Of a DNA stretch of 64,000 nt, positions 45,084-53,836 are shown piece by piece. Source of the DNA: Candidatus Corynebacterium gallistercoris (GTDB taxonomy: Bacteria; Actinomycetota; Actinomycetes; Mycobacteriales; Mycobacteriaceae). Under the pieces are notes generated by a model. It saw nothing but the letters and a program-made list of their open reading frames with translations. It searched no databases and was not told where the DNA came from. A program made the translations under genes and the position numbers. The stretch lies in the NCBI GenBank assembly GCA_019114175.1, contig DXFZ01000057.1, forward strand, positions 1-64,000, given 5' to 3'. Numbering within the stretch: the first letter of the stretch is position 1; each line of letters begins with the position of its first letter.

Positions 45084-45995
45084 ATGAGCGATAACAGCGT
45101 TAACACTGACCAAGACGATTTCCACATCGTGGACCTGGCCGCCACCGAAGGCTACCTGGTGGACGATTCCGACGAGGACGATCCCACCCTCATCACCCCG
45201 GACGGGCACCGAGTAGACACCTGGCGCGATGGCTACCCCTACGACGAGCGCATGAGCCGCGAGGAGTACGAGACCACGAAGCGGGCCCTGCAGATCGAGC
45301 TGCTGAAGTGGCAGAACTGGACCAAGGACACCGGCCAGAAGCACATCATTCTCTTCGAAGGCCGGGACGCCGCCGGTAAGGGCGGCACCATCAAGCGCTT
45401 CAACGAGCACCTGAACCCCCGCGGCGCGCGCACCGTGGCCTTGGAGAAGCCCAGCGAGCGTGAATCCACCTCCTGGTACTTCCAGCGCTACATCCAGCAC
45501 TTCCCGGCGGGCGGGGAGATCGTCTTCTTTGACCGCTCCTGGTACAACCGCTCCGGCGTGGAGCGCGTCATGGGCTTTTGCACCAACGATCAGCACGCGG
45601 AGTTCCTCCGCGAGGTTCCCATGCTGGAAAACATGATCATGGGCTCCGGAATCTCTCTGACCAAGCTGTGGTTCTCCGTGACCCGCAAGGAGCAGCGCAC
45701 CCGCTTTGCCATCCGTCAGGTGGATCCAGTGCGTCAGTGGAAGCTATCGCCCATGGATCTGGCCAGCTTGGACAAGTGGGACGATTACACCCGAGCCAAG
45801 GAAGAGCAGTTCCGTTACACGGATACCAACGAGTCCCCGTGGATCACCATTAAGTCCAATGACAAGAAGCGCGCACGCATCAACGCCATGCGCTACGTCC
45901 TCTCCAAGTTCGAGTACTCCGGCAAGGATCACGAGATCGTGGGGGAGCCGGACCCGCTCATCGTCAAGCGGGGCCGGGATCAGATCGGGGACTAG
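45084..45995 (+). CDS. ppk2: polyphosphate kinase 2
   Basis: ILFEGRDAAGKGGTIKRFNEHLNPRG; FFDRSWYNRSGVERVMGFC. Confidence 0.95.
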   Translation: MSDNSVNTDQDDFHIVDLAATEGYLVDDSDEDDPTLITPDGHRVDTWRDGYPYDERMSREEYETTKRALQIELLKWQNWTKDTGQKHIILFEGRDAAGKGGTIKRFNEHLNPRGARTVALEKPSERESTSWYFQRYIQHFPAGGEIVFFDRSWYNRSGVERVMGFCTNDQHAEFLREVPMLENMIMGSGISLTKLWFSVTRKEQRTRFAIRQVDPVRQWKLSPMDLASLDKWDDYTRAKEEQFRYTDTNESPWITIKSNDKKRARINAMRYVLSKFEYSGKDHEIVGEPDPLIVKRGRDQIGD

Positions 45996-46348
45996 CGAGC
46001 CTTTGCGCGCGCATTGATCTCGGTGGCTTGAGCTGCCGGTTTCTGCAAGGAAACGACGATGCGAGTGAAGCGCTCATTACGTAGCTCAATCACAACTGTG
46101 TCCTCGAAGCCGTCGACGTTCCAAAACTGGCGCTCACCCTCAGCATGAAAAGTTCCGGAGAGTTTTTGCCTGAATCTCAAACCGGGTCCACGCCACCCTT
46201 TGGGCTCGGTTTTCATCCCTGGGTCATGTGTTGCTCCTCGCACGTGATCCCAAGGAATATCAATTCGGCGGGTGAAGGACCAGAGTTTATCCAATCCTGT
46301 GGGTTCAATAGTGAGCGCGCCGTCAGACAGGGTAAGTACATTGCCCAT
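45992..46348 (-). CDS. hypothetical protein (about 118 aa)
   Basis: ATG with GGAG RBS; immediately downstream of TetR gene; overlaps ppk2 stop. Confidence 0.6.
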   Translation of the reverse strand: MGNVLTLSDGALTIEPTGLDKLWSFTRRIDIPWDHVRGATHDPGMKTEPKGWRGPGLRFRQKLSGTFHAEGERQFWNVDGFEDTVVIELRNERFTRIVVSLQKPAAQATEINARAKAR

Positions 46349-46358
46349 TGTGGACTCC

Positions 46359-46736
46359 TCATGCTTTCTTTCGGTTGAATCTGGCCAGCAGGTGCTGGCC
46401 AATCTGTGTGGGATCGTCAGAGAAACAAAGTGCAGTTGCTCGTGTGATTAGATGCGATAATTCTTCATCGGGATTACTCATCTCCAGCAGGGATATGAGT
46501 ACGAAGTCCTTCGAATCGGAGTCAACATCGTGATCCAATGCGCGTTCACATACTTGTCTCAGAGCAGCGCGGGCAAGGCCATGCTTGGAACCGAAAATTT
46601 TGTAGAAGCTCGCTCGATTCATCTCTAGCGCGGCAAGGATTGCGTCAACTGATGCCGCGTCAAAGCCTTCTCGGCCGAAGAGTCGCGTTGCTCGGCGCAG
46701 AACTTCAACTTCGTCAAAGGTGCGTGGCCGTCCCAT
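46359..46736 (-). CDS. TetR family regulator
   Basis: GRPRTFDEVEVLRRATRLFGREGFDAASVDAILAALEMNRASFYKIFGSKHGL HTH; start chosen below operator. Confidence 0.88.
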   Translation of the reverse strand: MGRPRTFDEVEVLRRATRLFGREGFDAASVDAILAALEMNRASFYKIFGSKHGLARAALRQVCERALDHDVDSDSKDFVLISLLEMSNPDEELSHLITRATALCFSDDPTQIGQHLLARFNRKKA

Positions 46737-46753
46737 GAGTTTCATACTACCCA

Positions 46754-46775
46754 TTCTAGAATAATTTGTCTAGAA
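46754..46775. promoter_or_regulatory. inverted repeat TTCTAGA-N8-TCTAGAA, probable TetR operator
   Basis: Perfect 7-bp arms immediately upstream of TetR gene. Confidence 0.7.
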
Positions 46776-46790: not shown

Positions 46791-49700
46791 TCAGCCCCAG
46801 ACCTCGATCGGGTTGCCCTGCCAGCGCGTGGCGGTGGGCACCTGGTCGCCCCGCATCACCAAGGACGCCGGCCCCACCACGGCCGCATCTGACACGTGAG
46901 CAGACGGTAAGACTACTGAGTGGGGGCCGATGGTGGCGCCGTCGCCCACAACTACCTCACCCAAGCTCATGACGCGATCCTGGAACAGGTGCGTCTGCAG
47001 CACGCAGCCCGGCCCCACAGAAGCCCCGGCGCCGACCCGCACCAAGTCCGCCTCCGGCAGCCAATAGGAATCCAGCCAGGCACCGCGGCCCACCTTCGCG
47101 CCCAGGCAGCGCAGGAAAACGTTCAAGCTGCCCGTGCCGAGGGTGTGGGAGAGGAACCACGGGCCGGCGACGGTCTCCACGAACTGATCCTGCAGCTCAT
47201 TGAGCCACACGAACTTGCTCCACAGGACGTGATCGCCAGCGGCAATCCGGCCCACGCATAGCCACTTCACCGCCACGGTCAGCACGGCGGCCACCAGTCC
47301 GGCCGCCACGAGGATCAACCCGGAGGCCAGCAGCGCGCCCACCACACCGAAACGCATGAGCATCCCCTGCCACGCCCACACGCAGCCGCCCGCAATCGTC
47401 GCAGAGGCCATGGGGGCGGTCAGGCGGAGCGTCTCCACGGCACCGCGGGCGGCTTTCACGCCGAAGCCGGGGTTGTAGGTGCGGGCCTCGCTCTCGGTGT
47501 CCACGGTGGACCGGCGCAACCGCTCCGGTGGGGAACCGATCCAGTTGGAGCCGGACTTCGTCTTCGCCGGAGTAGAAGACAGCACAGCCACCAGGGAGTT
47601 CTTCTTCAGGTGACGTTCCGGGCCAGCGATGCCGGAGTTGCCCAGGAAGCTGCGCTTGCCGACCCGCGTGTGGCCGGTGCGCATCCAGCCGCCGGGGCCG
47701 AGCTCGTAGCCGCCGACCATCGTGTCATCGGCCAAGAACGCGCCCTCCTTCACCTCGGCGAACCGCGGCACCATCACGGCCGTGGAGATCTCCGCATCCT
47801 TGCCCACCTTCGCGCCTAGGGCCCGGAACCACAGCGGTGTTAGCTGCGCGGCATAGAGGGGGAACAGGTGGGTTCGGGCGGCGTCCATGAGGCGCTGGAT
47901 CGCCCACACGCGCCAGCCGGTGGCGCTGCGCACGGGCGTCACACCAGGAGTTAGACCCACGGAAAGCGCCCGCACCGCAAGGAACGTCAAACTCACATAC
48001 ACCCCGAAGGCGGCCAACCCAGCCACGGCCGATAGGCCCACCACGGCGGGGAGGGTTGGGGCGGTGGCGTCGCTATCAAGAACAACAAGAACCACCGCGG
48101 CGCCGCACAAGACAGCCAACCACGGCAGCGCGGCCAAAGCCACGGCCGTGGCGGCGAAGGCCCAGACCCAGCCGCGAACCCGAGGAGCAGGGGAATCGGG
48201 GAACGCGGAGCGGGCCTTACCCACCTTCTTCGCCGGAGAACCGGCCCACCGCTGCCGGGCCTTGACCTTGCCCATCACGGCGGAGCCGGGCTCCACGTAC
48301 GCCCCCGCGCCGATCCTCGTGCCCGGAAGCAACACGCTGCGCGCACCGACGGTGGCTCCGGTGCCGATGCGGATTTCGCCCACGTGCAGCACGTCCCCCT
48401 CCAGCCAGTGGCCGGAAAGATCCACCTCCTGCTCCACGGCGGCGGCCTCGCCCAAGCGCAGCAGGCCCGTCACCGGGGGCAGGGAGTGCAACTGTACGTC
48501 CTTGGCCACCGTTGCGCCCAACCAGCGCGCGTAGGTGGACATCCACACCGCGCCGGAAACGTCCAGGGCGCCGGAGGTATCGGCGATGCGCTCGGCGGCC
48601 CAGATGCGCAGGTGAACGCTACCGCCGCGGGGATAAGAGCCCGGCGTGATGCCGCGGGTGAGCAGGCGGATGATCGCCGCGGACAGGGGCAGGCGGCCAA
48701 GCGGGGTGGCGAACACCACCACCAGAAGAACGCACAGCCACACAGGCACCGCCACGGCCCACGCCACGCACGCCGCGGCGAGGAACGCGTTGGCCACGCA
48801 CAGCCACGTCACCCAGCGGGCGCCCGCCAGCGTGAGCGCCGGAACCTGCCAGGCTGCCTGTGCCAGCCGGGTGCGCCAGCCGACCGGCTGAGCGGGTTCG
48901 GAGGGTGCGGCGGCAGCCTGGCCAGCGCCGCGCAAGGAATCCACGTAGGCGGCGAAGGCTCCCAGCCGGGAGTGGTCGTACAGATCCCGCACGCTCACCG
49001 TGGGCACCTCCTGGCGCACCCGGCCAATAAGGGTGGCCGCGCCCAAGGACGTGCCGCCCAGGGTGAAGAAGTCCGCGCCCGCGCTGGTCACAGCGGTTCC
49101 CAGCGCATCGGACCACAGCCCCGCCAGCCAGGCCTCGGTCTCCGTATCGAAGTGCGCCTCCCCGCGGGAGGGCAGCGGCCACGGCAGGGCCTTCTTGTCC
49201 ACCTTGCCGCTGGTGGTCACCGGCAGCGAGTCCAGCGGGCAGAGCCTTGGCACCATGGCGGCGGGCAGGCGCGCGGCCAGGTCCGCTTGTGCTGCGGTGA
49301 CATCAAAGTCATCCGCACTCCCGGCCTCCGGGGAGACGTACCCCACCAGCACCTTGTCCCCGCCACCGGTGGTCTGTACCACCACGGCGGCGCTGCGAAC
49401 ATTATCCAGGGCGGCCAGCGCGGCATCGATTTCTCCCAGCTCAATACGCCGCCCGCCGATCTTCACCTGGTCATCCACGCGGCCCACGAAGTACAGGCCA
49501 TCGGCCTCCAGGCGGACGTGGTCGCCGGTGCGGTAGGCACGCTCCCAGCCGAGGGTCTCCATCGGCGCGAACTTCTCCGCGTCCTTGGCCGGGTCCAGGT
49601 AGCGGGCCAGGCCCACGCCGCCGATGATGAGCTCGCCGGTCTCACCAACGGCCACAGGCTGGTTGTCCCCGTCCACCACGGCCAGGTCCCAGCCATCGAG

Positions 49701-50630
49701 CGGCAGGCCGATGGACACCGGCGAGGCCCCGTCCATTTGCGCGCCGCAGGCCACCACGGTTGCCTCCGTGGGGCCGTAGGTGTTCCACAGCTCGCGGCCG
49801 GGGGTGGCCAGGCGGCGGGCGAGTTCCGGCGGGCAGGCCTCGCCGCCGAAGATGAGCAGCCGCACGGCGTCCAGAGCCTCGTCCGGCCAGAGTCCGGCCA
49901 GGGTGGGCACGGTGGAGACCACGGTGATGGACCGGGCGATCAGCCACGGGCCCAGATCCACGCCGGAGCGGACAAGCGCCCGCGGTGCCGGCACCAGGCA
50001 CGCGCCGTGCCGCCAGGCGAGCCACATTTCCTCGCAGGAGGCATCGAAGGCCACGGATAGGCCGGCGAGCACTCGGTCGCCGGGGCCGAGCGGCTGGTCC
50101 TGGCAGAACATGCGCGCTTCCGCGTCCACGAAGGCCGCCGCGGATCGGTGCGTCACGGCCACGCCCTTGGGCTTGCCGGTGGAGCCGGAGGTGAAGATGA
50201 TCCACGCGTCGGTCTCCAGGTCCGGGCCGGTGGTTGTTGTTTTTTGGTGCGACGCCACCCCCACGTACTCAAACCCCGCAGCCGTGAAGTGGCCGGCCAC
50301 GGCGGCCTCCCCGAACACGAGATCTGCGCGCTCTTGTGGGTCGTCAGCATCAACGGGAACGTAGGCCGCTCCAGCGGCGATGGTGGCGAGGATGCTGATG
50401 TATAGCTCCCGGTCGCCCGAGGGCATGCGGATGCCGATGCGGTCGCCACGCCTGATGCCTGCGGCGTGAAGGTCGGCGGCGCGCTCGGTGATGAGGCTGA
50501 TGAGCTCTCCGTACGTGACCACGCCCCGGCCATCGTCGATGGCTGGGGCGTCTGGGTGGTTGTCCGCGGTGGCGTGGAGGATGTCCAGCAGTGTGCGTGG
50601 GGCGGGGGCGTGGTCGCTGCGGAGGAACAT
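46791..50630 (-). CDS. Pls/PosA-family non-ribosomal peptide synthetase (A-T plus membrane/hexapeptide-like C-terminal repeats)
   Basis: A domain IIFTSGSTGKPKGVAVTHRS, NTYGPTEATV; carrier motif FFTLGGTSLGAATLIGRV; TM segments alternating with hexapeptide-like repeats. Confidence 0.88.
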   Translation of the reverse strand: MFLRSDHAPAPRTLLDILHATADNHPDAPAIDDGRGVVTYGELISLITERAADLHAAGIRRGDRIGIRMPSGDRELYISILATIAAGAAYVPVDADDPQERADLVFGEAAVAGHFTAAGFEYVGVASHQKTTTTGPDLETDAWIIFTSGSTGKPKGVAVTHRSAAAFVDAEARMFCQDQPLGPGDRVLAGLSVAFDASCEEMWLAWRHGACLVPAPRALVRSGVDLGPWLIARSITVVSTVPTLAGLWPDEALDAVRLLIFGGEACPPELARRLATPGRELWNTYGPTEATVVACGAQMDGASPVSIGLPLDGWDLAVVDGDNQPVAVGETGELIIGGVGLARYLDPAKDAEKFAPMETLGWERAYRTGDHVRLEADGLYFVGRVDDQVKIGGRRIELGEIDAALAALDNVRSAAVVVQTTGGGDKVLVGYVSPEAGSADDFDVTAAQADLAARLPAAMVPRLCPLDSLPVTTSGKVDKKALPWPLPSRGEAHFDTETEAWLAGLWSDALGTAVTSAGADFFTLGGTSLGAATLIGRVRQEVPTVSVRDLYDHSRLGAFAAYVDSLRGAGQAAAAPSEPAQPVGWRTRLAQAAWQVPALTLAGARWVTWLCVANAFLAAACVAWAVAVPVWLCVLLVVVFATPLGRLPLSAAIIRLLTRGITPGSYPRGGSVHLRIWAAERIADTSGALDVSGAVWMSTYARWLGATVAKDVQLHSLPPVTGLLRLGEAAAVEQEVDLSGHWLEGDVLHVGEIRIGTGATVGARSVLLPGTRIGAGAYVEPGSAVMGKVKARQRWAGSPAKKVGKARSAFPDSPAPRVRGWVWAFAATAVALAALPWLAVLCGAAVVLVVLDSDATAPTLPAVVGLSAVAGLAAFGVYVSLTFLAVRALSVGLTPGVTPVRSATGWRVWAIQRLMDAARTHLFPLYAAQLTPLWFRALGAKVGKDAEISTAVMVPRFAEVKEGAFLADDTMVGGYELGPGGWMRTGHTRVGKRSFLGNSGIAGPERHLKKNSLVAVLSSTPAKTKSGSNWIGSPPERLRRSTVDTESEARTYNPGFGVKAARGAVETLRLTAPMASATIAGGCVWAWQGMLMRFGVVGALLASGLILVAAGLVAAVLTVAVKWLCVGRIAAGDHVLWSKFVWLNELQDQFVETVAGPWFLSHTLGTGSLNVFLRCLGAKVGRGAWLDSYWLPEADLVRVGAGASVGPGCVLQTHLFQDRVMSLGEVVVGDGATIGPHSVVLPSAHVSDAAVVGPASLVMRGDQVPTATRWQGNPIEVWG
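48063..48089 (-). repeat. dispersed motif copy: ggtggcgtcgctatcaagaacaacaag
   Basis: Consensus match on minus strand inside Pls gene. Confidence 0.65.
50233..50262 (+). repeat. dispersed motif copy: gttgttgttttttggtgcgacgccaccccc
   Basis: Best consensus match, inside Pls gene. Confidence 0.8.
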
Positions 50631-51085
50631 TAACTTTCGTCCCCGGCTTCCCCGGCGATGATGGATTTCGCCAGCTTGCGCAGGTGTTTCAGCTGTTTAG
50701 AGGTGGATTCGTCCAGCGCCTTGTCTTCGGCGGCGGTGACGATGGGCTTGAGCTCCGCGCGTGCCTTCGCGCCCTTTTTGGTGATGGAGATGATCTGGCG
50801 GCGGCGGTCTTTCGCGTCTTTCACGCGCTTGGCCAGGTTGCGCTTTTCCAGGGAGTCCACGAGGCGGACCATGTCTGAGCGGTCAACACCCAGGATCTCG
50901 CCCAAGGTGGATTGGCTGGCGGCATCCCCTTCCACCAGGCAGGTGAGGATCCAGTATTCGCGCAGGTTGTAGCCGTGCTCGGCGAGGTCGGCTTCAACGA
51001 ACTCGCGGGTGCGGCGGCGGAGCCTCTCCAGTTGAAAGGAGGGGGAGGACAGTAGCTCTGAGGGCAGCGGCGAAGTATCAGGCAT
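50630..51085 (-). CDS. MarR family transcriptional regulator, translationally coupled to Pls gene (TAATG)
   Basis: REYWILTCLVEGDAASQSTLGEILGVDRSDMVRLVDSLEKRNLAKRVKDAKDRRRQIISITKKG. Confidence 0.9.
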   Translation of the reverse strand: MPDTSPLPSELLSSPSFQLERLRRRTREFVEADLAEHGYNLREYWILTCLVEGDAASQSTLGEILGVDRSDMVRLVDSLEKRNLAKRVKDAKDRRRQIISITKKGAKARAELKPIVTAAEDKALDESTSKQLKHLRKLAKSIIAGEAGDES

Positions 51086-51139
51086 GCTTCAAAATATACC
51101 GCCGCCGCGATGGGGATGTCTAATGGTGGGGGGTTCCCA

Positions 51140-51457
51140 CTATTTGATTTCGTCCTCGCGGCGCCAGATTCCCAGGCCCTCATCGCGCCAGCCGGAGGTA
51201 CCATTCGCCACGTTCTTCGCGTCGATGCCGTTCATCTCCAGCCACTCTGCCGCCTTGGCGGAGCGCCCGCCGGACAAGCAGATGAGGTAGATGTCCTCAT
51301 TGAGGTCCAGCTCGGAGTAACGCACCTGCAGCTCGGAGAGCGGAATGTTCTTCGCGCCCACGGCGTGCCACTCGTTGAACTCATCAGCCTCACGCACGTC
51401 AATCAGCTGCGCATTGGCGGGAACATCGGTCGGTTGAACAGTCTCAAATTCGCTCAT
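51140..51457 (-). CDS. rhodanese-like domain protein
   Basis: AQLIDVREADEFNEWHAVGAKNIPLSEL; IYLICLSGGRSAKAAEWL. Confidence 0.9.
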   Translation of the reverse strand: MSEFETVQPTDVPANAQLIDVREADEFNEWHAVGAKNIPLSELQVRYSELDLNEDIYLICLSGGRSAKAAEWLEMNGIDAKNVANGTSGWRDEGLGIWRREDEIK

Positions 51458-51532: not shown

Positions 51533-53836
51533 GTGAGTACGAATCCCGCCCCGCAGGGGCTCAGCATCGCAGAAGTAGACCAGCGCACACGTGAGGGTAA
51601 AGCCAACACCCAAGCGCGCTCTACAGGGCGCTCCGTGGGGCAGATCCTGCGGGCGAACATCTTCACCCGGGTTAACGCCATCTTGGGCGTGCTGTGCGCC
51701 ATCGTGCTCTCCACCGGCTCGGTCATCAACGCTGCCTTCGGGTTGCTCATCATCGCCAACTCCGCGGTGGGCGTCATCCAGGAGTTGCGGGCGAAGAAGA
51801 CGCTGGACAACCTGCGGATCGTGGGGGAGGCCAAGCCGACCGTCATCCGGGACGGGGTTGAAACCACCGTGGAGCAGTCAGAGGTGGTAGAAGGCGAGAT
51901 CTTAAAGCTCGGCAGCGGTGACGAGATCGTAGTCGATGGCCGGCTCATTAAGGGCAACATCCGGGTAGATGAGTCCCAACTCACCGGCGAATCAGACGCG
52001 GTGGCCAAGCAGGAGGGAGAGGAGATCCTCTCCGGCTCCTTCGTCACCCAAGGCCACGGCTACATGGAGGCCACGAAGGTCGGCGCGGATGCCTACGCGG
52101 CCAAGCTCGCCGCCCAGGCGAGCGAGTTCTCTCTCACGGACTCCGTGCTCATGAGCGGCATCAACCAGATCCTCAAGGTCATCACCTGGCTGCTCATCCC
52201 CACCGGGCTGCTCACCATCTACACCCAGCTGGTCCGCTCCGGCACGGGGTGGAAGGAATCCATCCTCTCCATGGCCGCGGCCATCGTGCCCATGGTGCCG
52301 GAGGGCCTGGTGCTCATGACCTCCATCGCCTTCGCCGCGGGCGTCATCCGGCTCGGCAAATACAAGGCGCTCGTCAATGAGCTCGTGGCCATCGAGGGGC
52401 TCGCCAGGGTTAACACCGTCTGCACGGACAAGACCGGAACCCTCACCACCAACGAAATGGAGCTGGAGGAGATCCTGGACGCACACGGCACCCCGGCCGC
52501 GGACGAGGACCTGCAGCATCTAGCCAACCTGCTGGCCAGCCAAGAAGATCTCAATGACACCGCCCGGGCCATCCAACAGGGTCTGCAGGATCGCGGCATC
52601 ACCGGTACACCGTGGCAGGGCGAGGAGATCCCCTTCAACTCGCGGGACAAGTACTCCGGCTTCAGCACGGGTGGGGGCCGCTGGCTGCTCGGCGCGCCGG
52701 ACGTGCTGCTGGACTCCGGCCCCGCCGCCGAGCTCGCCAAAGAGAAGGGGGATCAGGGCAAGCGGATCCTCGTCTTCCAGCCCGCCGAGGCCGAACCCGT
52801 GCTCATCGTGTTGCGCCAGCAACTGCGCCCCGATGCCCGGGAGACCCTGGACTACTTCGCAGCACAGGACGTGGACCTCAAAGTCATCTCCGGGGACAAC
52901 GCGGACTCGGTCAAGGCCGTGGCCGCCCAGGCCACGGACCGGCCCCTCACCGCGGTGGACGCCCGCGAGCTGGCGGACCTAGACCAAGACTCCTTCGATG
53001 ACCGCATCGCCCAGGCCAACGTCTTCGGCCGCGTCACCCCGGAACAAAAGCAGCAAATGGTGGCCTCCCTGCACCGCCAGCACCGGACCGTGGCCATGAC
53101 CGGCGATGGCGTCAACGATGTCCTGGCTCTGAAGAAGGCGGACATCGGCGTGGCGATGGGCTCCGGGGCCCCGGCCACGAGATCCGTGGCGCAGCTGGTG
53201 CTGCTCACCAACCGTTTCTCAGCCCTGCCGGCCGTTGTGGCGGAGGGCCGTCGCGTCATAGGAAACATCGAACGCGTGGCCCACCTGTTCCTCACCAAGA
53301 CCGTCTACTCGGTGGTGCTGGCACTGGTCGTGGCCATCCTGGGCATTTCCTTTCCCTTCCAGCCCATCCACGTGACCATCACCGGCTGGTTCACCATCGG
53401 TATTCCGGCGTTCGTCCTCTCGCTCGCCCCGAACACGGAGCGCCCCCGGGATGGCTTCGTCCGCCGCGTGCTCTCCCTCGCGTTGCCCTCCGGCGTGCTA
53501 GTCGGCGGCATCAGCGTGATCTTCTGGCTGGTGATCTACCCCGGTGCGGACGTGCCGGAGATTCAGCGCCAGCAGGCGGGCACTGCGGTGCTGCTGGCGC
53601 TAATCGTGATGAGCCTGTGGGTCTTAAGCATCGTTGCCCGCCCCCTGAACGGGTGGAAGAGCCTGCTGCTCGCCTGCTGCGTCACCGGATACCTGGTGAT
53701 CTTCCTCGTCCCCTCACTGCGGGAGCTGTTGCTCCTGCACACCGGCAACACCCAGTTGATGCTGACCGGCCTGGCCGTGGGCGCCGGCGGCGCGGTCCTC
53801 ATCGAGGCCGCGCACCAGGTCACCCGCCGCCTTTAG
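51533..53836 (+). CDS. cation-translocating P-type ATPase (CtpE-like)
   Basis: [45 protein letters not shown]. Confidence 0.92.

What the first reader, a model, noticed from the sequence alone, without database searches (positions are those of the whole stretch)
46791..51085. MarR-Pls operon: candidate poly-amino-acid (epsilon-polylysine-like) synthase in a Corynebacterium
The 1279-aa protein has one A domain, one carrier domain (LGGTSLGA), then TM segments alternating with hexapeptide-like repeats and no normal condensation or thioesterase domain. That is the layout of the Pls/PosA family, whose founding member makes epsilon-poly-L-lysine in Streptomyces. Its start codon overlaps the stop of a MarR regulator (TAATG), implying a coregulated two-gene unit.
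Basis: partly seen in the sequence, partly recalled or inferred. Interest (0 to 1): 0.7.

Follow-up and report, generated by a model that had tools for sequence, protein, structure and literature searches.

The report
Epsilon-polylysine synthetase with MarR regulator gene
This Corynebacterium carries a gene for the enzyme that makes the antimicrobial polymer epsilon-poly-L-lysine, joined to a regulator gene; the enzyme is a known kind that is common in the genus, and the useful addition is a conserved candidate for its unknown on/off switch.

Summary
The 1279-aa gene (46791-50630, minus strand) is a full Pls/PosA-family synthetase. TIGR02353 scores 714 bits (cut-off 423). The adenylation domain is 67% identical to Streptomyces albulus Pls, with an identical ten-residue lysine pocket (DAESIGTVVK). 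It has a carrier Ser528, no condensation or thioesterase domain, and a confidently modelled C-terminus of three membrane-helix plus left-handed beta-helix units.

What I add is context. The overlapping MarR gene is the immediate upstream neighbour in 102 of those 117 genomes, behind a conserved promoter with a palindrome abutting its -35 box. The epsilon-PL-degrading M1 peptidase (PldII-like), which follows pls in other genera, lies elsewhere in this genome and is present in 116 of 117 Pls genomes but only 4 of 44 others. This predicts an epsilon-PL system under its own MarR, with the degradation gene unlinked. The MarR is a candidate for the unknown switch that keeps corynebacterial Pls silent in culture. 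Regulation and product are untested.

The parts
46791..50630 (-). pls: epsilon-poly-L-lysine synthetase, 1279 aa (A - carrier - C-terminal polymerising membrane domain)
   Evidence: TIGR02353 714 bits (cut-off 423.1) and AA-adenyl-dom 334.8 bits; A domain 652 bits to S. albulus Pls 7wew
49185..50612 (-). Adenylation domain (residues 7-482); pocket D196 A197 E200 S239 I260 G262 T284 V292 V293 K476
   Evidence: pocket identical to S. albulus Pls
48942..49130 (-). Carrier (thiolation) domain, residues 501-563, phosphopantetheine site Ser528
   Evidence: PF00550 41.2 bits; Ser in 94 of 94 sequences
46806..48863 (-). Pls/PosA C-terminal domain (residues 590-1275): three units of membrane helices plus left-handed beta-helix
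   Evidence: TIGR02353; AlphaFold2 pLDDT 90.7; Foldseek best matches are hexapeptide acetyltransferases, E 2e-5
48216..48479 (-). C1 beta-helix, about residues 718-805
   Evidence: model strands; Pfam Hexapep 753-785
47538..47813 (-). C2 beta-helix, about residues 940-1031
   Evidence: model strands
46800..47102 (-). C3 beta-helix, about residues 1177-1277; holds the conserved YWLPExDL and QTHLFxDR motifs
   Evidence: model; conservation
50630..51085 (-). marR: MarR-family regulator, stop overlaps pls start (TAATG)
   Evidence: PF01047/PF12802; sequence; immediate upstream neighbour in 102 of 117 Pls genomes of the genus
51093..51122 (-). Predicted promoter TAGACA-18-TATATT; the -10 box ends 7 nt before the marR ATG, so a leaderless mRNA is likely
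   Evidence: conserved in relatives
51126..51140 (-). Candidate MarR operator GTGGGAACCCCCCAC, palindrome just upstream of the -35 box
   Evidence: position; conserved palindrome in related marR promoters

Best explanation
The gene is a true Pls. The A domain adenylates L-lysine and loads it on the carrier Ser528. The membrane-embedded C-terminal domain, three left-handed beta-helix acyltransferase-like units, then joins carrier-bound lysine to a growing chain through the side-chain (epsilon) amine and releases or exports epsilon-poly-L-lysine. The MarR encoded immediately upstream is transcribed with pls from one promoter, probably as a leaderless mRNA. It most likely binds a palindrome next to the -35 box and controls both genes in response to an unknown small molecule. 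A PldII-like M1 aminopeptidase encoded elsewhere degrades the polymer for self-protection or recycling. Shown here: gene anatomy, lysine pocket identity, fold of the C-terminus (model), conserved marR-pls linkage, co-occurrence with the peptidase. Inferred: product, shared transcript, operator binding, sign and signal of regulation. The confidence given is for the enzyme; for control by MarR it is about 0.65.
For: TIGR02353 714 bits against a cut-off of 423. A domain 324/482 identical to S. albulus Pls 7wew. Pocket DAESIGTVVK identical in S. albulus and in all 93 homologues aligned. The C. variabile homologue makes epsilon-PL of 26-35 residues in S. coelicolor (PMC8117764). AlphaFold of the C-terminus pLDDT 90.7, beta-helix folds. 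marR directly upstream in 102 of 117 genomes, and in Nocardia, Antrihabitans and Speluncibacter loci with pldII downstream. PldII-like peptidase in 116 of 117 Pls genomes and 4 of 44 others, Fisher p = 5e-32; those 4 are one 77%-complete genome and three with split, broken or partial Pls. Promoter and palindrome conservation.
Against: No product was measured. C. variabile and a C. glutamicum expressing its Pls made no detectable epsilon-PL in culture (PMC8117764). About 30 genomes keep the MarR without an intact Pls of this type, so MarR may have another target. The palindrome was chosen after inspection, the genomes are related, and the bare GTGGG-N-CCCAC pattern is not rare genome-wide (22 sites against 42 in the control). 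The palindrome is absent from 20 pldII promoters.
Confidence: 0.85

Rival explanations
1. The enzyme is a Pls-family polymerase for another diamino acid (ornithine, diaminobutyrate, diaminopropionate, beta-lysine).
For: The family makes several cationic homopolymers (PMC10522769); pocket codes predict only approximately.
Against: Position 2 is Ala as in Lys enzymes, not Met (ornithine) or Phe (PDAP/PDAB). The code is identical to S. albulus Pls, not DGESISVVNK (beta-lysine). It co-occurs with a PldII-like peptidase.
Confidence: 0.08
2. The MarR does not control pls; it is a neighbour kept for another role (for example next to ppk2, rhodanese and pyrophosphatase genes) and the pairing reflects ancestral synteny.
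For: MarR remains between ppk2 and the rhodanese gene in Pls-free genomes, and about 30 genomes have MarR without intact Pls of this type.
Against: The linkage persists across genera and at loci where the rest of the synteny differs, the genes overlap by one base here, and the promoter scan finds no site between them.
Confidence: 0.3
3. Pls is present but cryptic or non-functional in this strain.
For: C. variabile Pls protein was not detected in culture (PMC8117764); several relatives carry split or broken copies.
Against: Here the ORF is intact, pocket and carrier residues are conserved, and the peptidase partner with its HELAH...E zinc motif is intact.
Confidence: 0.15

Closest known systems
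Epsilon-poly-L-lysine synthetase Pls of Streptomyces albulus
   Same: Domain order A - carrier - three tandem soluble domains with membrane helices; identical lysine pocket; A domain 67% identical
   Different: Upstream MarR gene; no pldII directly downstream; different promoter
Pls of Corynebacterium variabile DSM 44702 (PMC8117764), product shown to be epsilon-PL
   Same: Same genus, family and predicted substrate
   Different: C. [quoted passage not shown] Corynebacterium loci with that layout here (L133-L135) are 54% identical to this Pls and have an ABC-F gene upstream instead of marR
PosA, delta-poly-L-ornithine synthetase of Acinetobacter baumannii (PMC10522769)
   Same: Family, architecture, conserved pocket Asp and Glu
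   Different: PosA pocket is DMEHNGTVSK (Met at position 2, ornithine); here DAESIGTVVK
PldII, epsilon-PL-degrading aminopeptidase
   Same: PldII-like M1 peptidase exists in this genome (C46:28045-29412, 42% to the pls-linked one)
   Different: Unlinked to pls here; translationally coupled to pls in S. albulus (PMC9223678)

Membership tests
Pls/PosA cationic homo-poly-amino-acid synthetases | NRPS adenylation domain at the N-terminus | tested here: met
   PF00501 199 bits, TIGR01733 334.8 bits over its 317.4 cut-off
Pls/PosA cationic homo-poly-amino-acid synthetases | One carrier domain with phosphopantetheine serine | tested here: met
   PF00550 41.2 bits; Ser528 in 94 of 94
Pls/PosA cationic homo-poly-amino-acid synthetases | No condensation or thioesterase domain | tested here: met
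   Pfam scan shows none
Pls/PosA cationic homo-poly-amino-acid synthetases | C-terminal NRPS_term_dom with tandem soluble domains separated by membrane helices | tested here: met
   TIGR02353 714 bits, positions 2-695 of 695; AlphaFold model with three helix plus beta-helix units. Membrane insertion itself is predicted only
Epsilon-poly-L-lysine synthetase (Pls proper) | Lysine-type pocket (Ala at position 2, Asp 1, Glu 3) | tested here: met
   DAESIGTVVK, identical to S. albulus
Epsilon-poly-L-lysine synthetase (Pls proper) | Adjacent epsilon-PL-degrading peptidase gene (pldII), usual though not strictly defining | tested here: not met
   No peptidase next to pls here; a PldII-like M1 peptidase is present on another contig and co-occurs with Pls 116/117 versus 4/44. 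S. albulus PldII sequence itself was not compared
Epsilon-poly-L-lysine synthetase (Pls proper) | Product is epsilon-poly-L-lysine | not testable with these tools
   needs expression and mass spectrometry
MarR-family regulator of the pls operon | MarR winged-helix family | tested here: met
   PF01047, PF12802 over cut-off; similarity to solved MarR structures
MarR-family regulator of the pls operon | Palindromic operator at its own promoter | tested here: inconclusive
   T[GT]GG-N4-8-CC[CA]A in 25 of 41 related promoters against a mean of 2.8 in shuffles; pattern chosen after inspection, genomes related

The most novel reading that the evidence does not exclude
The MarR encoded with pls is the dedicated switch of epsilon-PL synthesis in Corynebacterium: it holds the marR-pls operon silent (or turns it on) by binding the conserved palindrome beside the -35 box, and its ligand is the missing trigger that left C. 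variabile Pls unexpressed in the laboratory.
Probability: 0.4. Interest if true: 0.5.

Novelty: new member of a known kind. Interest (0 to 1): 0.3.

Why it matters
Epsilon-PL is a food preservative, and most corynebacteria sampled appear able to make it, yet no native production was seen in C. variabile culture. A conserved marR-pls unit gives a direct, testable handle on the switch. The split of pls from its degrading peptidase suggests synthesis and breakdown are controlled separately in this genus.

Tried and rejected
Shared MarR box at pldII: searched 20 pldII promoters, none, so a common regulon is not supported. Genome-wide search for the palindrome as a regulon map: 22 sites against 42 in the control, uninformative. 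PldII next to pls in this genome: not there; found at C46 instead. Literature on a MarR controlling pls: no specific hit; a survey of respiratory corynebacteria lists NAPAA clusters but does not mention MarR. First conservation pass used too strict a text filter (17 loci) and was redone (93 loci). Plasmid search: only homologues below 60% identity. The rival 'ordinary NRPS or acyl-CoA ligase' was dropped because the Pls/PosA C-terminal model matches over its full length.

Full report
What is there. The ORF at 46791-50630 (-) encodes 1279 aa and starts on the last base of the stop codon of a 151-aa MarR gene at 50630-51085 (-). Pfam finds one adenylation domain, one carrier domain and one hexapeptide stretch, with no condensation or thioesterase domain. 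NCBIfam assigns residues 590-1275 to TIGR02353, 'Pls/PosA family non-ribosomal peptide synthetase', at 714 bits against a curated cut-off of 423. The best solved relative is the A domain of S. albulus epsilon-poly-L-lysine synthase (7wew, 652 bits; 324 of 482 aligned residues identical).

Substrate. Mapping the ten pocket positions gives DAESIGTVVK, identical to S. albulus Pls and to all 93 homologues aligned. By the structure-function work on PosA, Ala at position 2 marks lysine enzymes, Met ornithine and Phe diaminopropionate/diaminobutyrate (PMC10522769). L-lysine is therefore strongly predicted.

C-terminal machine. A 42-sequence alignment (A1) gave a confident AlphaFold2 model (pLDDT 90.7, pTM 0.90): three repeats of long helices followed by a left-handed beta-helix, at about residues 718-805, 940-1031 and 1177-1277. 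Foldseek matches hexapeptide acyltransferases (galactoside, maltose and serine acetyltransferases; best E 2e-5), in line with the published description of three acetyltransferase-related domains (PMC8117764). TM-scores are partial (mostly 0.3-0.5 on the target), so this is fold-level likeness only. Only a few hydrophobic peaks pass a simple hydropathy cut in this region, although the model has helices for all three units. Conserved polar residues cluster in C3 (E1193, D1195, Q1212, T1213, H1214, D1218, R1219); I suggest, as inference, that they serve the condensation step.

How common. 121 of 161 Corynebacterium genomes sampled exceed the TIGR02353 cut-off; 117 carry the type seen here (over 600 bits). 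Production of epsilon-PL by a Corynebacterium Pls was shown in 2021 by heterologous expression (PMC8117764), and antiSMASH surveys list NAPAA clusters, in one case named as epsilon-PL, as widespread in skin and respiratory corynebacteria (PMC12542688; PMC12188740). So the enzyme is a new member of a known kind.

The MarR. An orthologous MarR lies directly upstream of pls in 102 of the 117 genomes (distance to the C-terminal HMM start under 2.2 kb). The pairing extends beyond the genus: Speluncibacter, Antrihabitans and five Nocardia loci have a related MarR 100-200 bp upstream of pls. In close relatives the order is groEL - ppk2 - pls - marR - rhodanese - (ATPase) - ppa - dacB - tilS (the names of the outer genes ppa, dacB and tilS are my reading of the sequences, not tested). 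About 30 genomes keep MarR without an intact Pls of this type; in the Pls-free loci read out it stands at the same site, which is evidence against an exclusive link.

Promoter. The region upstream of marR has TAGACA-18-TATATT, with the -10 box 7 nt before the ATG, which suggests a leaderless transcript. The -35 box and a preceding palindrome (GTGGG-N-CCCAC; 51126-51140 here) are conserved in relatives. A T[GT]GG-N4-8-CC[CA]A pattern is found in 25 of 41 marR promoters against 2.8 on average in dinucleotide shuffles (maximum 9 of 300 shuffles). The centre lies about 48 bp before the predicted start, a position compatible with repression or activation, so I leave the sign open. The pattern was chosen after inspection and the genomes are related; it is a lead, not proof.

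The degradation partner. In 70 loci, all from other genera, an M1 peptidase of about 460 aa (PldII-like) follows pls, in most of them within about 200 bp. The eight named Corynebacterium loci (L009-L014, L020, L085) lack it. In this genome it sits on another contig (C46:28045-29412; 42% identity; zinc motif HELAH...E intact). Across the 161 genomes it is present in 116 of 117 with Pls and 4 of 44 without (p = 5e-32, not corrected for relatedness). Of those four, one is a 77% complete genome and three have split, broken or partial Pls. Three Pls-free genomes checked have only the generic long aminopeptidase type. This supports epsilon-PL as the product and shows that the pls-pldII pair is separated in most corynebacteria. 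A minority (for example G160, G094, G115) carry a different Pls with an ABC-F gene upstream and the peptidase downstream, at another site, while MarR stays on another contig.

Verdict. The enzyme is ordinary for the genus. The conserved marR-pls unit is the part worth an experiment, because the published C. variabile work ended on an unknown trigger.

Noticed in passing
window 46359-46754 and 45992-46402 (-): A short TetR-type gene (131 aa) overlapping a small gene without Pfam or NCBIfam match, between ppk2 and pls; not seen in this position in eight close relatives. An inverted repeat TTCTAGA...TCTAGAA lies before the TetR gene.
   Followed up: partly
L140-L151 (Corynebacterium genomes G154, G149, G019, G023, G088, G141, G095, G018, G030, G084, G003, G076): A second Pls/PosA paralogue (500-570 bits, 43-46% identical, pocket mostly DAESIGTVIK) in about 20 Corynebacterium genomes; two genomes (G003, G030) have only this type and lack the PldII-like peptidase, so its product may differ.
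   Followed up: partly
L133, L134, L135: Corynebacterium loci with ABC-F (ribosomal-protection-like) gene - pls - M1 peptidase, at a site away from ppk2; an ABC-F gene beside an epsilon-PL synthetase is unexplained.
   Followed up: partly
L127-L130, L138: Genomes without this Pls type that keep the MarR gene at or near the ppk2 - rhodanese site, as if pls alone had been lost.
   Followed up: partly
upstream of pldII-like genes, L193-L203: Conserved short promoter element CTAGTAGGGT(G)CTTGTGTGA running into the gene start, which looks like a leaderless start.
   Followed up: no
window 51533-53836 (+): P-type (E1-E2) ATPase divergent from the rhodanese gene; present at this place in some relatives only.
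   Followed up: no
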